DNA of 64,000 nucleotides from Ianthella basta (lineage: Eukaryota; Porifera; Demospongiae; Verongiida; Ianthellidae): NCBI GenBank assembly GCA_964019415.1, contig OZ025875.1, positions 6,223,806 through 6,287,805 of the forward strand. The letters run 5' to 3'. The notes under the pieces were generated by a model that was not told where the DNA came from, made no database searches, and saw only the letters and a program-made list of their open reading frames with translations. The position numbers and the translations under genes were made by a program. Shown here piece after piece: positions 36,692 through 61,284 of this stretch (its first letter is position 1; every line of letters begins with the position of its first letter).

Positions 36692-36767
36692 ATGGCAAGA
36701 GGATTAGGCTCAGCCTTGAGCCTTGTATTCTTGGCCGCTGTACTGCTCTCAGGGTGCAGCTCAGAAG
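36692..36767 (+). CDS. Spare signal-peptide exon (type I) upstream of receptor gene A
   Basis: ATG followed by ARGLGSALSLVFLAAVLLS, ending GCSSEG at a GTGAGG donor in phase 1. At 76 bp it is exactly as long as the first exons of A, B and C. Its sequence is closest to gene C's first exon (both M-RG-GS... and LLSGC). It could splice in frame to the Ig exon at 40442, giving gene A a second promoter and leader, or be the remains of a lost gene. Confidence 0.5.
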
Positions 36768-37140
36768 GTGAGGAGTAATCAGTTTAAGAATCAAAACTGG
36801 GTTGTTTAAAGGTACCCTGTCATACTTTCGGTATAATGAGTATTTGCTTAAAACACAGCTGAGCTTTCTTGCCTATGTACTGTGAGTGCATGCTATACCT
36901 TCTGTATTTAGTGGGACATACATGAAATGAATGTGGCATTTGTAGAAATGATGTAACATAATATAGATTTTAGCTGAATGATATGACAAATCTTGGAATA
37001 ATTATAATACTCTCCCACTCAGAAAGTTTAATATAAAAAAATCTTTGTGTACTGCATTCACCACTGACTTGGGCACGCCACATATATTCCCTGGTAAAGT
37101 TCACAGTCTCATGATTTTCAGAAGCCCAATCTTTTCCAAC

Positions 37141-58700: not shown

Positions 58701-61284
58701 CACTGGTAGGTAATGAACACTTAATGAACACTTAATGAAATGCATTAATGAAGTACCTTAATCACCTCAAGTGCTGTGGCAAATGTCTGGTTCTGAAGCA
58801 CTGATGCAATGAGTTTGTTACATATACCCATTGTAATTCTCCTCGGCCCTTTCTTCTCTTTCAGGTGGGTATGTTGTCCACAGCTATGGGAGACTCATAC
58901 CAAAAGAATTGCCCATAACTCATCTACAACAGATATCTGGCCCAGATGGGATTGGGAGGATCTACTGCACTTTCAGCAGTGATACAGCTTGGTTCAAATT
59001 ACAGGGAAATCCACCAACTGGTGGAGCAATTAAGATAAGAAATGGAACTCCTGCATCTCTGACAATGAATGCCACTGATGCTGGCAGTTTCCACAACATG
59101 GAAGGTTTCTGCAAGTTGAAATCCACATATTTCTTTGTCTTTCTATCAGCCAAGTGTAAGTGTTCCATAAAAGATGCATTTACATATTAAACGGATAATG
59201 GCAGACTATGCACTTAAGCTACGGCCACTAATCTGTGTATAATATATTAGTATGTGTTACTTCCAGTCATCTCTTAGGCAGTAGTGATGAGTAGAGGATA
59301 AAGGTGTGTGCAAGTACACAGTACTAGGCTGATATGCATGTACAAAGTATGAAGATATGTTTTCACACCAATATCAGCAATGTTCAGCTGCTATCATTGC
59401 TAGATCGTATTCCCTTACTAATAACCATTGTACCTATGTACTTGTGAGGATTCTAAACTTTAAATCAGGAGCAGTATTGTGACACTGTACCTACAAGTCA
59501 TGGGAGGTAAATCAGTCCAGCACTGCATGAAGAAGGCCTCCTGTGTGTGTGTGTGTGTGTGTGTGTGTGTGTGTGTGTGTGTGTGTGTGTGTGTGTGTGT
59601 GTGTGTGTGTGTGTGTGTGTGTGTGTGTGTGTGTGTGTGTGTGTGTGTGTGTGTGTGTGTGTGTGTGTGTGTTTGTGTGTGTGTGTGTGTGTGTGTGTGT
59701 GTGTGTGTGCATTATATGCACATACATGATTGTGTATGCATTGTGGAATTATATGATTTAAAATACCAGATGATTGCTATATTTTCTATAGTTTCACTCA
59801 GTGTTCCAAGACTCACTGTCAACACAGCTACCAGTTCAGGTGTGGAGTACCGAGTGGAGAGGAGTGACGCTGCAACAACTCGTGTCATTACTGGATATGA
59901 GGTGTTCCGCTTTGGAGTACCAATGATTGGAGAGTATGTGAATACAGGTAGAGGGAGGACAGTTACAATCAGCCCTGCAGTACCAGGTGTTCAGTACAGG
60001 ATTACAGCATGGGCACTTGACAGTGGTACTAGGAGGAGTGCAACACCAGCAGTGAAGATTGCTAGCACTATAGAAAAAAGCGAGTGAACCATGACCACAC
60101 ACAAGAGTTTCTGATACACAAAATAAATGCATCAGCTAAATTTAAAATGCATGCAAACTCCTAGACAATCATTGATGCTAATCTATAGTATACTGCAGAT
60201 TAGTATGTGTGTCACTTCTAGCTAAGCATTCACTTACACTAGCATGCTTCCAACAAGTAGGCAAGTAGTGATCCACCTGTACTCATCTCCATAAGCTATA
60301 CTATATGCCTTTCACTGTTCATCTTACAGTACCATCACCACCAAGGCAACTATCTGTTACAAGGGTATTTGAAGATGGAATAGAACTGAACTGGCTATCT
60401 CCTACTGAACGCAATGGAGAGGTGCACTATGTCATATACTACACACCAGAAGGTGGCACAGAACAGTCAAATGACATTGGGAGCAACCTGACCCACTACA
60501 ACTTGACAGGACTTGAGAGGAACAGAGTGTACACCAACATTGCAGTACAGGCTGTCAACTCAGTTGGGAGATCAGACGGGAGTGCAGTAATAGCACAGTA
60601 CAATCATGCACGACCTGGTGAGTTCCTGCACATGAGTACATGGTTATGTACATATGGTATCTTCAATGCTGTCACATAGTACAGATGTAAAATGAGGAAC
60701 TTCTTAATTGGTATGTGTAGCACAGTAATGATGTATGTGCCGCTAGATTACATACAGGTATGGATTATTGTACATAAATAAACAGCTTATACAGTATGAT
60801 AATCAATATTCATGCTGTCAATTAGCTACCACAGTTACAGAAGTATGCAGCAGGCACTCTCTAGCTGCAGCAGAAATGTTAAGTACAGGCATATGAGGTA
60901 GTCCTTTGTACATACAACTATGCACAAATATTATTATACTCTTTGCTCCCTTCCACAGCCACCTCCACTGTCCCCTCCAGCTGCCCCCTCCTCCCAGCTG
61001 TTGTCTCCCTGACTGTGGTAGTCCTACTCCTCATCACTTGTGTGGCTCTACTGGTAGTTGCTCTAGCAGTGACTGCCAACAAACTGAACAAGTTGAGGGC
61101 AGAGAAGGCTTGCAATGACCCACCTCACTACTACAACCAGACAGGAGGAGGGGAGGGGAAGGCTAAGGAGGGGGTCTATGATGAGGTAGGGGAGGGGACA
61201 GCCCCTACTGGAGGACAGAGTGGGCACTATCAAGAGCTGGAACTGGGGACAGTGGAGTGGAGACAGTATGAGAGCCTGAGCTAG
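55725..61284 (+). CDS. Receptor gene C: same plan, with a frameshift at the FN3-1 donor
   Basis: Exons 55725-55800 (leader MERGVGSIWCLLPLVAG), 58394-58705 (Ig1, almost as in A and B), 58865-59155 (Ig2, strongly diverged: RIYCTFSSDTAWFKLQG to MEGFCKLKS), 59792-60083 (FN3-1), 60330-60617 (FN3-2) and 60959-61284 (span SLTVVVLLLITCVALLVVAL; tail VYDEV, HYQEL, QYESL). A run of six A at 60074-60079 makes FN3-1 292 bp, one base too long. Spliced as in A and B the frame is lost. Read through, the protein ends at TGA 60085-60087 after 324 residues, with AATAAA 35 bp later. So C is either a secreted Ig-Ig-FN3 protein, a recent pseudogene, or carries a homopolymer sequencing error, in which case it has 527 residues. 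Confidence 0.7.
55801..58393. other. First intron of gene C
   Basis: 2.6 kb. From about 57160 it matches the gene A intron (from 39215). A frame at 57867-58064 (FEIRLLQAYVLCGGNTTNY) is open here but broken in A and B; it is probably a repeat relic. A decayed type I leader-like sequence lies near 56500. Confidence 0.45.
58070..58175. repeat. Intronic hairpin element, truncated copy C
   Basis: Same left arm and centre as the copies at 39951 and 48926, ending after CAGCCGAAAT. Confidence 0.55.
59541..59709. repeat. (GT)n tract before the FN3-1 exon of gene C
   Basis: About 84 GT units with one TT interruption, about 80 bp before the acceptor at 59791. Confidence 0.97.
60122..60127 (+). promoter_or_regulatory. 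Poly(A) signal AATAAA inside gene C intron 4
   Basis: Lies 35 bp after the TGA reached by reading through the FN3-1 exon; absent from the same place in A and B. It could end a short, secreted transcript. Confidence 0.4.

What the first reader, a model, noticed from the sequence alone, without database searches (positions are those of the whole stretch)
36692..61284. Tandem Ig-Ig-FN3-FN3-TM receptor cluster with conserved tyrosine tails
Three paralogs share one plan with 76-bp leader exons, almost all junctions in phase 1, and three tyrosine motifs in each tail (the middle one, YQEL, is invariant). Symmetrical phase-1 exons allow domain shuffling, skipping or alternative tails without frame loss. 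Known allorecognition receptors such as the Hydractinia Alr proteins also combine Ig-like domains, one span and tyrosine motifs. Likeness is by architecture only; this may be an undescribed sponge recognition-receptor family.
Basis: partly seen in the sequence, partly recalled or inferred. Interest (0 to 1): 0.85.

Follow-up and report, generated by a model that had tools for sequence, protein, structure and literature searches.

The report
Giant sponge Ig-FN3 receptor gene complex
The three look-alike receptor genes in this stretch of a sponge genome belong to a family of well over a hundred copies that share the same outer part but carry different signalling tails, which makes it a strong, still untested candidate for how a sponge tells self from other.

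Summary
Genes A (38974-43627), B (47920-53304) and C (55725-61284) share leader-Ig1-domain2-FN3-FN3-TM-tail with phase-1 exons. Genome-wide the Ig1 exon has at least 148 loci: 121 on C8 over 1.39 Mb at about 8-kb spacing, the rest on C16, C3, C4, C20. A 39-nt Ig1 core occurs 156 times, 58 exactly. In the copies fetched, in-phase splice sites persist in 168/168 acceptors and 126/127 donors.

The ectodomain is joined to at least three tail classes: YDEV/YQEL/YESL (27 of 31 fit a relaxed, none a strict ITAM), YxxP-rich, and ITIM-like YAVV. A and B also keep an exon encoding the end of a YxxP-class tail. Divergence is a mosaic: the Ig1 core is nearly uniform at synonymous sites, other blocks are saturated. 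FN3-1, not domain 2, has relatively most amino-acid change.

Mitochondrial atp9 supports a sponge. Best reading: a paired-receptor-type recognition complex with interchangeable tails, shaped by gene conversion. Self or microbe is undecided. Domain 2 is not proven Ig; expression and polymorphism are untested.

The parts
36692..36767 (+). orphan 76-bp leader exon (MARGLGSALSLVFLAAVLLSGCSSE), nearest to gene C's leader; alternative first exon of A or a remnant
   Evidence: read; followed by a GTGAGG donor; 13 of 25 residues shared with C's leader, 6 with A's
38974..39049 (+). gene A leader exon (signal peptide by eye)
   Evidence: its region is 84% identical to the region of B's leader
40442..40753 (+). 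gene A Ig1 exon
   Evidence: phase 1-1; the exon alone scores Ig_3 31.0, Ig_2 28.5, I-set 25.5 bits, all over cut-off; in the joined protein only I-set (23.9, cut-off 23.7) stays over
40878..41189 (+). gene A second-domain exon ('Ig2'; fold unproven, two conserved cysteines)
   Evidence: no Pfam match; AF2 pLDDT 45.7; cysteines
41441..41509 (+). possible 69-nt linker exon of gene A (doubtful; B's copy lacks the AG)
41861..42160 (+). gene A FN3-1 exon
   Evidence: AF2 pLDDT 77.8; Foldseek hits FN3 domains, probability 1.00
42605..42895 (+). gene A FN3-2 exon
   Evidence: Pfam fn3 41.4 bits
43024..43047 (+). possible 24-nt exon of gene A (doubtful)
   Evidence: region absent from B; C not checked
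43287..43627 (+). gene A TM and tail exon: YEEI, YQEL, YEMM; holds an in-phase GTAAGA at 43473
   Evidence: 40 tblastn matches to this exon genome-wide
44858..44988 (+). second tail exon behind A (TLPYVSLPYVPDEEMYYNTRGGPRPLPQDSNYDYALMDRQQK*), phase-1 acceptor
   Evidence: 42 matches, all on C8; the two other copies fetched (L074, L075) are the C-terminal end of a YxxP-class tail
47920..47995 (+). gene B leader exon
50086..50397 (+). gene B Ig1 exon
50540..50851 (+). gene B second-domain exon
51053..51157 (+). remnant of a second-domain exon in a gene B intron (C-terminal 35 codons)
   Evidence: tblastn 89%
51695..51994 (+). gene B FN3-1 exon
52467..52757 (+). gene B FN3-2 exon
52970..53304 (+). 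gene B TM and tail exon: YEEM, YQEL, YEIT
54545..54669 (+). second tail exon behind B (PLPYVPLPYVPDEELYYNTRGGSLPQDGHYDYALVDRQQK*)
55725..55800 (+). gene C leader exon
58394..58705 (+). gene C Ig1 exon
58865..59155 (+). gene C second-domain exon, of a type found at C8 6.60-6.68 Mb
59792..60079 (+). gene C FN3-1 exon, with a GC donor (60080-60081)
   Evidence: one search had ended it at 60083
60330..60617 (+). gene C FN3-2 exon
60959..61284 (+). gene C TM and tail exon: YDEV, YQEL, YESL (relaxed ITAM, x9 spacer)

Best explanation
The three genes are part of a sponge recognition-receptor gene complex of well over a hundred members, built like vertebrate paired-receptor or natural-killer receptor complexes. 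SHOWN: one ectodomain plan (Ig1, second beta domain, FN3, FN3) recurs, with its Ig1 exon at about 8-kb intervals over 1.4 Mb. It is joined through phase-1 exons to different single-span tails: ITAM-like YDEV/YQEL/YESL, YxxP-rich, or ITIM-like YAVV. Blocks of the gene differ sharply in divergence; Ig1 shows no shared history with its neighbours, while some other blocks partly travel together. INFERRED: members are displayed on cells; Ig1 is a constant structural or dimerising module; domain 2 and the FN3-1 loops carry specificity; ligand binding leads to phosphorylation of tail tyrosines by Src-type kinases; the tail class sets the output (activating, adaptor-recruiting or inhibitory). Unequal crossing-over and gene conversion, helped by symmetric exons, keep the constant blocks uniform and now and then move variable blocks and tails.
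For: Census: 148 Ig1 loci in the rows listed; 156 core copies by pattern, 0 in the reversed control. Tail classes: 40 matches; 123 pieces; 56 pieces; L069-L071 read. Ig1 exon over Pfam cut-offs and FN3-2 over the fn3 cut-off; FN3-1 fold. Tyrosine motifs: all three in 29 of 31 tails; relaxed ITAM in 27 of 31 against 0.29 expected after shuffling each tail. Phase-1 splice sites: acceptors 168/168, donors 126/127. Mosaic: synonymous difference (pS) at Ig1 codons 25-60 is 0.04-0.08 between the YQEL and YAVV zones, while the end of domain 2 reaches 0.85 and FN3-1 codons 13-24 0.77. Ig1 core distances do not follow those of Ig1 N (r -0.06), Ig1 C (-0.20) or domain 2 C half (-0.20). FN3-1 has more nonsynonymous change than the other exons, Fisher P 7e-7.
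Against: No transcript, protein, ligand or population data. Strict ITAM (x6-8) is met by 0 of 31 tails; Syk was not looked for. The tails are paralogs, so the shuffle overstates significance. Free shuffling is contradicted in part: domain 2 C half correlates with FN3-2 N (r 0.63, P 0.004) and with the tail (0.55, P 0.014), FN3-2 with the tail (0.54, P 0.02), domain 2 N with C half (0.38, P 0.023), FN3-2 N with its rest (0.46, P 0.029). pN/pS is below 1 in four of five exons; FN3-1 at 1.20 is not significantly above neutrality (P 0.064), and its loop signal (P 0.02) was picked afterwards. The neighbouring UGT array also has a homogenised block. Several copies carry stops. Only 35 of at least 148 Ig1 exons entered the divergence counts.
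Confidence: 0.6

Rival explanations
1. It is an innate receptor repertoire for microbes or symbionts, not for self: many germline variants, each with a ligand among the bacteria that sponges filter or host.
For: Copy number, mosaic diversity and several tail classes fit pathogen-driven families equally well. Two of three sponges compared have expanded SRCR immune-domain families, discussed in terms of microbes (PMC4772301 passages).
Against: Nothing here favours microbes over self; no expression after bacterial challenge is available.
Confidence: 0.35
2. It is a homophilic adhesion and cell-sorting family, with tails serving endocytosis (YxxPhi) and cytoskeletal adaptors rather than immune signalling.
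For: PDB sequence matches of gene A are to receptor phosphatases, Eph receptors, contactins, neogenin and DCC. YQEL, YESL and YEEM also read as YxxPhi sorting signals (recalled).
Against: Conserved spacing of three tyrosines and class-specific YxxP and YAVV motifs go beyond an endocytic signal. Copy number far exceeds that of usual adhesion families (recalled).
Confidence: 0.25
3. It is a neutral or mostly decayed tandem array: recent duplication and drift, with conversion keeping fragments alike and many copies non-functional.
For: Copies with stops, a GC donor in gene C, orphan leader and exon remnants. The UGT array next door also has a homogenised block.
Against: In-phase splice sites kept at 294 of 295 sites tested. 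Tail tyrosines kept in 29 of 31. Whole-exon pN/pS is 0.54-0.68 in four of five exons.
Confidence: 0.1
4. The near-identical Ig1, FN3-1 and FN3-2 cores are kept by constraint on the DNA or RNA itself (splicing enhancers or recombination anchors) rather than by ordinary gene conversion.
For: 58 exact copies of a 39-mer on four contigs. Synonymous difference 0.00-0.03 at Ig1 codons 25-48 even between C16 and C8, no higher than the 0.00-0.05 within the C8 YQEL zone.
Against: UGT copies show a similar low-divergence block, which general conversion explains.
Confidence: 0.15

Closest known systems
Hydractinia Alr family (allorecognition complex)
   Same: Clustered single-pass Ig-type genes; [quoted passage not shown] ITIM/hemITAM-type motifs reported on Alr candidates (PMC12065747 passages).
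   Different: No Alr sequence was compared. Here: FN3 domains, an almost uniform Ig1, at least 148 loci, and tail classes grouped by zone. Polymorphism and fusion phenotype unknown.
Botryllus fester co-receptors (FcoR)
   Same: Type I receptors with Ig domains and tails bearing ITIM, hemITAM or YxxI/L/V motifs, with motif swapping by splicing reported (PMC12065747 passages).
   Different: FcoRs have a V-type Ig, a sushi and two C2-type Ig domains, not Ig-FN3 (same passages).
Vertebrate paired receptor families (KIR/LILR, CEACAM, Siglec)
   Same: Like ectodomains on activating and inhibitory tails; ectodomains made alike by gene conversion (abstracts of PMC5701461 and PMC7042247 in the listing).
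   Different: No homology shown beyond the Ig domain class; TM-adaptor partners were not looked for.
Geodia cydonium Ig receptor tyrosine kinase and Ig-like adhesion molecule
   Same: Sponge receptors with Ig-like domains (PMC12018476 and PMC11999971 passages).
   Different: No kinase domain in gene A, the YAVV, the YxxP or the C16 tail scanned.
Sponge aggregation factors
   Same: The candidate usually named for sponge allorecognition (recalled; Grice 2017 is cited in PMC12065747 and PMC5450542; not held).
   Different: Calx-beta, their domain (recalled), is absent from gene A by Pfam; the 150 listed Calx-beta matches lie on C11, C6, C23, C20, C36 and C1, none on C8.

Membership tests
Immunoglobulin superfamily | an Ig domain recognised by curated profiles | tested here: met
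   Ig1 exon: Ig_3 31.0 (cut-off 30), Ig_2 28.5 (27), I-set 25.5 (23.7) bits; in the joined gene A protein 27.2, 24.5 and 23.9, so only I-set stays over
Immunoglobulin superfamily | second domain also Ig | tested here: inconclusive
   no Ig model in Pfam scan of 16 members; AF2 pLDDT 45.7; hhalign to Ig1 no match; PDB profile E 0.57; two invariant cysteines in A, B, C
FN3-containing receptors | two FN3 domains | tested here: met
   FN3-2 Pfam 41.4 bits, cut-off 25; FN3-1 by fold only, Pfam fn3 in 1 of 7 members at E 0.015, no profile match to FN3-2
ITAM receptors | YxxL/I x6-8 YxxL/I | tested here: not met
   0 of 31 tails; 27 of 31 with a x6-12 spacer (26 have x9, 1 has x11)
ITIM receptors | [ILVS]xYxx[ILV] in the tail | tested here: not met
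   2 of 31 YQEL-class tails, neither in the window; present in L069 (VVYAVV) and L071 (SVYEQL), absent in L070, L074, L075
Hydractinia Alr family | sequence or structural homology to Alr1/Alr2 | not testable with these tools
   no Alr sequence was available to me; Huene 2022 not held
Allorecognition locus | high allelic polymorphism and control of fusion | not testable with these tools
   one assembly, no second individual
Sponge Ig receptor tyrosine kinases | cytoplasmic kinase domain | tested here: not met
   no kinase in Pfam scans of gene A, the L069 tail, the L070 and L071 tails
Sponge aggregation factors | Calx-beta domains (recalled) | tested here: not met
   none in gene A by Pfam; none of the 150 listed Calx-beta matches on C8, of 969 candidates

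The most novel reading that the evidence does not exclude
This is the long-sought self/non-self receptor locus of a sponge: at least 148 germline Ig-FN3 receptor loci whose variable blocks and signalling tails are re-sorted over time between near-identical anchor blocks, on one main chromosome and several satellites. ITAM-like, YxxP and ITIM-like outputs would make it an independently evolved natural-killer-type paired-receptor complex in an early-branching animal.
Probability: 0.28. Interest if true: 0.95.

Novelty: new variant of a known kind. Interest (0 to 1): 0.78.

Why it matters
Sponges tell self from non-self grafts with remarkable specificity (abstract of PMC5450542 in the listing), yet that graft transcriptome of Amphimedon saw no significant enrichment for aggregation-factor-mediated adhesion genes (passage). 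A mapped complex of this size with ITAM-like tails gives a concrete locus to test by allele sharing and fusion. It would place tail-swapped paired receptors in sponges, next to Hydractinia and Botryllus, whose unrelated receptors are said to converge on the same signalling motifs (PMC12065747 passages). The mosaic also offers a natural case of germline repertoire change by segment exchange.

Tried and rejected
Species name: Cliona cf. orientalis (217.17 Mb, 307 scaffolds) and Phakellia ventilabrum (211.92 Mb, 26 scaffolds) do not match 209.09 Mb in 96 contigs (passages); the other sponge abstracts listed that state a size give other sizes. Left unnamed. Relatives in prokaryote and viral collections: 34 and 11 pattern hits, none confirmed. 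Domain 2 as Ig by profile, fold and PDB sequence: inconclusive. Domain 2 as the positively selected module: not supported. Homogenised cores as special to the receptors: weakened by the UGT control. Linkage to Calx-beta arrays: none on C8 among the listed matches. A count for the second tail exon used a wrong frame for A and was replaced. The first end of gene C's FN3-1 was replaced by the GC-donor reading. On re-checking I lowered the novel case from 0.30 to 0.28, because one search also shows blocks that travel together.

I saw only the listed part where more matched (25 of 195, 15 of 506, 12 of 20, 15 of 51). No title or abstract listed names this family. Subscription papers are mostly not held and no bioRxiv library is, so 'not in print' is not claimed.
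Full report
WHAT WAS CHECKED. I rebuilt the three genes from the sequence. A: leader 38974-39049, Ig1 40442-40753, domain 2 40878-41189, FN3-1 41861-42160, FN3-2 42605-42895, TM and tail 43287-43627. B: 47920-47995, 50086-50397, 50540-50851, 51695-51994, 52467-52757, 52970-53304. C: 55725-55800, 58394-58705, 58865-59155, 59792-60079, 60330-60617, 60959-61284. Ectodomain exons are multiples of three between phase-1 junctions. Gene C's FN3-1 donor is GC in place of GT. 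A further 76-bp leader at 36692-36767 is nearest to C's leader (13 of 25 residues) and belongs to no gene for certain.

DOMAINS. The Ig1 exon is over the Pfam cut-off for Ig_3, Ig_2 and I-set; in the joined protein only I-set stays just over. FN3-2 is over the fn3 cut-off. FN3-1 is missed by Pfam in gene A (fn3 in 1 of 7 family members, E 0.015) and has no profile match to FN3-2, but its model (pLDDT 77.8) matches FN3 domains in the PDB, many of them engineered, with probability 1.00. Domain 2 is unresolved: no Ig model in 16 members, pLDDT 45.7, no profile match to Ig1, best PDB hit an antibody light chain at E 0.57. Two invariant cysteines are compatible with an Ig fold but prove nothing.

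THE FAMILY. The window lies at C8:6223806-6287805 of an unnamed 209-Mb assembly. A search with Ig1 plus domain 2 gave 182 matches, 150 of 529 candidates being scored. The rows listed hold 148 distinct Ig1 loci, some partial or with stops, after I set aside two rows that are domain 2: 121 on C8 between 6.264 and 7.654 Mb (15 on +, then 106 on -; median spacing 8.1 and 7.9 kb), 16 on C16, 6 on C3, 4 on C4, 1 on C20. A 39-nt stretch of the Ig1 core occurs 156 times with up to 3 mismatches (39 +, 117 -), 0 times for the reversed pattern; I counted 58 exact copies in the listing (C4 3, C8 51, C16 3, C20 1). These are lower bounds.

TAILS. The TM/YQEL exon gave 40 matches, pieces included, on C8 6.267-6.488 and 6.683 Mb and on C4. 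Three stretches from other zones (read) carry the same ectodomain on other tails: L069 (C8 7.46 Mb) a Ser/Thr/Pro-rich stalk and two YAVVDK motifs; L070 (C8 6.61 Mb) three YxxP motifs; L071 (C16) another YQEL-bearing tail. No kinase was found in them. Searches with the L069 and L070 tails gave 56 and 123 matching pieces, in C8 7.18-7.55 Mb plus C16, and C8 6.5-7.02 Mb plus C3. Of 33 YQEL-class tail matches in fetched loci, 31 longer than 60 residues were counted; 2 were dropped because a stop cut them short. All three motifs are present in 29 of 31; YQEL is exact in 25. The last two motifs fit a relaxed ITAM in 27 of 31 (26 with x9), none fits the strict spacing, and 0.29 are expected when each tail is shuffled. 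The tails are paralogs, so this is not an independent-sample test. In the window only C fits; A ends YEMM and B YEIT.

A SECOND TAIL EXON. Behind A (44858-44988) and B (54545-54669) lies an open, phase-1 exon encoding LPYVPDEELYYNTRGG...YDYAL.DRQQK. It has 42 matches, all on C8; 33 of the 40 outside A and B sit in open frames of 159 residues or more. The two of these that I fetched, L074 and L075, are the C-terminal ends of YxxP-class tails, and homology runs on past the stop. A and B differ there mostly at synonymous sites (7.0 of 26.5 against 7.0 of 93.5 nonsynonymous, Fisher P about 0.01), with 6 gap columns; the exon differs by 11%, its flanks by 4%. So it is kept as coding, or was overwritten from a functional copy. 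A has an in-phase GTAAGA at 43473 inside its tail exon that could splice to it; B has AT there. This is a hypothesis.

EVOLUTION. Exons passing length and no-stop filters: Ig1 35, domain 2 33, FN3-1 29, FN3-2 24, TM-tail 24, a part of the family. Synonymous difference (pS) is a mosaic. YQEL versus YAVV zone: 0.04-0.08 at Ig1 codons 25-60, 0.64-0.85 in the last third of domain 2, 0.77 at FN3-1 codons 13-24, 0.07-0.09 at codons 37-84, then 0.35-1.17 in eight of nine FN3-2 windows and 0.10 in one (one YAVV-zone FN3-2 only). In 31 genes of the YQEL and YxxP zones, the Ig1 core follows none of the blocks compared with it, but five block pairs do correlate (r 0.38-0.63, P 0.004-0.03), among them domain 2 C half with FN3-2 N and with the tail. 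So Ig1 is homogenised across lineages, while parts of the rest descend together. Exchange is nevertheless seen: gene C's domain 2 is 80% identical to the copy at C8:6645679, which sits in front of a YxxP-class tail, and 48% to A's. In disjoint nearest pairs, pN/pS is 0.64 (Ig1), 0.63 (domain 2), 1.20 (FN3-1), 0.54 (FN3-2), 0.68 (TM-tail). FN3-1 differs from the rest (Fisher P 7e-7) but is not itself significantly above 1 (P 0.064). The one loop above 2 was chosen after looking. As a control, six intact UGT copies upstream in the window also have a low block (pS 0.08-0.12 at alignment codons 451-540, mostly 0.3-0.7 elsewhere). Local homogenisation is thus not special to the receptors.

SPLICEABILITY. 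Over the exons in fetched copies, an in-phase AG lies within 15 nt of the expected acceptor in 168 of 168 and an in-phase GT within 12 nt of the expected donor in 126 of 127; by chance about half would pass. The exception is gene C's FN3-1.

ORGANISM. COX1 lies on a 21.2-kb contig with nine TGA codons inside the match. An atp9 frame sits beside nad4, and nad6, nad3, nad4L, cox1 and cox2 follow; apart from cox1, genes were named by eye. A mitochondrial atp9 is, from general knowledge, a mark of demosponge-type mtDNA.

MECHANISM. Most likely a recognition complex with constant and variable modules and exchangeable tails. Shown: architecture, number, tail classes, mosaic. Inferred: surface display, ligand binding by domain 2 and FN3-1 loops, Src-type phosphorylation, opposing outputs. 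A hint: a gene with SH2 and tyrosine-kinase domains lies about 20 kb beyond the C4 receptor group, among 10 of 70 genome SH2 matches that lie on C4 at 2.80-3.42 Mb. Self or microbe cannot be decided here.

KNOWN KINDS. It works like Alr, FcoR and vertebrate paired receptors in plan; membership in Alr or FcoR was not testable. It is not an aggregation factor, and the proteins scanned carry no kinase. Passages of a 2025 review on invertebrate IgSF mention for sponges adhesion molecules, the aggregation factor, glyconectins and a Geodia Ig-like molecule, not such a complex. The seven searches on this question listed no such family, but many journals are not held.

Noticed in passing
C4:2942500-2947500 (L078): SH2 (82 bits) plus tyrosine-kinase (319 bits) exon, Src-like by eye, with a second SH2-like exon (26 bits) upstream, about 20 kb from the C4 receptor group; 10 of 70 SH2 matches lie on C4 2.80-3.42 Mb.
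   Followed up: partly
window 2471-23910: Tandem array of single-exon UDP-glucuronosyl/glucosyltransferase genes (Pfam UDPGT 114 bits for the copy at 2471; six frames intact, at least one broken) with a homogenised C-terminal block.
   Followed up: partly
window 30768-32567: Intact 599-aa single-exon acyl-CoA dehydrogenase-like ORF (Pfam Acyl-CoA_dh_1 92 bits, ACDH-11_C 81 bits) between the UGT and receptor arrays.
   Followed up: partly
window 62358-62561: Inverted repeat downstream of gene C: two 97-nt arms, 97% complementary, 10 nt apart; perhaps a small mobile element.
   Followed up: partly
window 37100-38140, 44560-44850, 45990-46170, 49430-49620: Many short imperfect repeats around the receptor genes (such as GGGGAATACGGCATCCCC...GGGCATCTGGTGCC), possibly helping unequal exchange.
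   Followed up: no
G000 C11, C6, C23, C20: Large Calx-beta arrays (150 of 969 candidates scored and listed), none on C8; candidates for the aggregation-factor genes of this sponge.
   Followed up: no
G000 C12:1688478-1713223: Dense tandem FN3 array with very similar repeats, the best fn3 matches of the genome; relation to this complex not examined.
   Followed up: no
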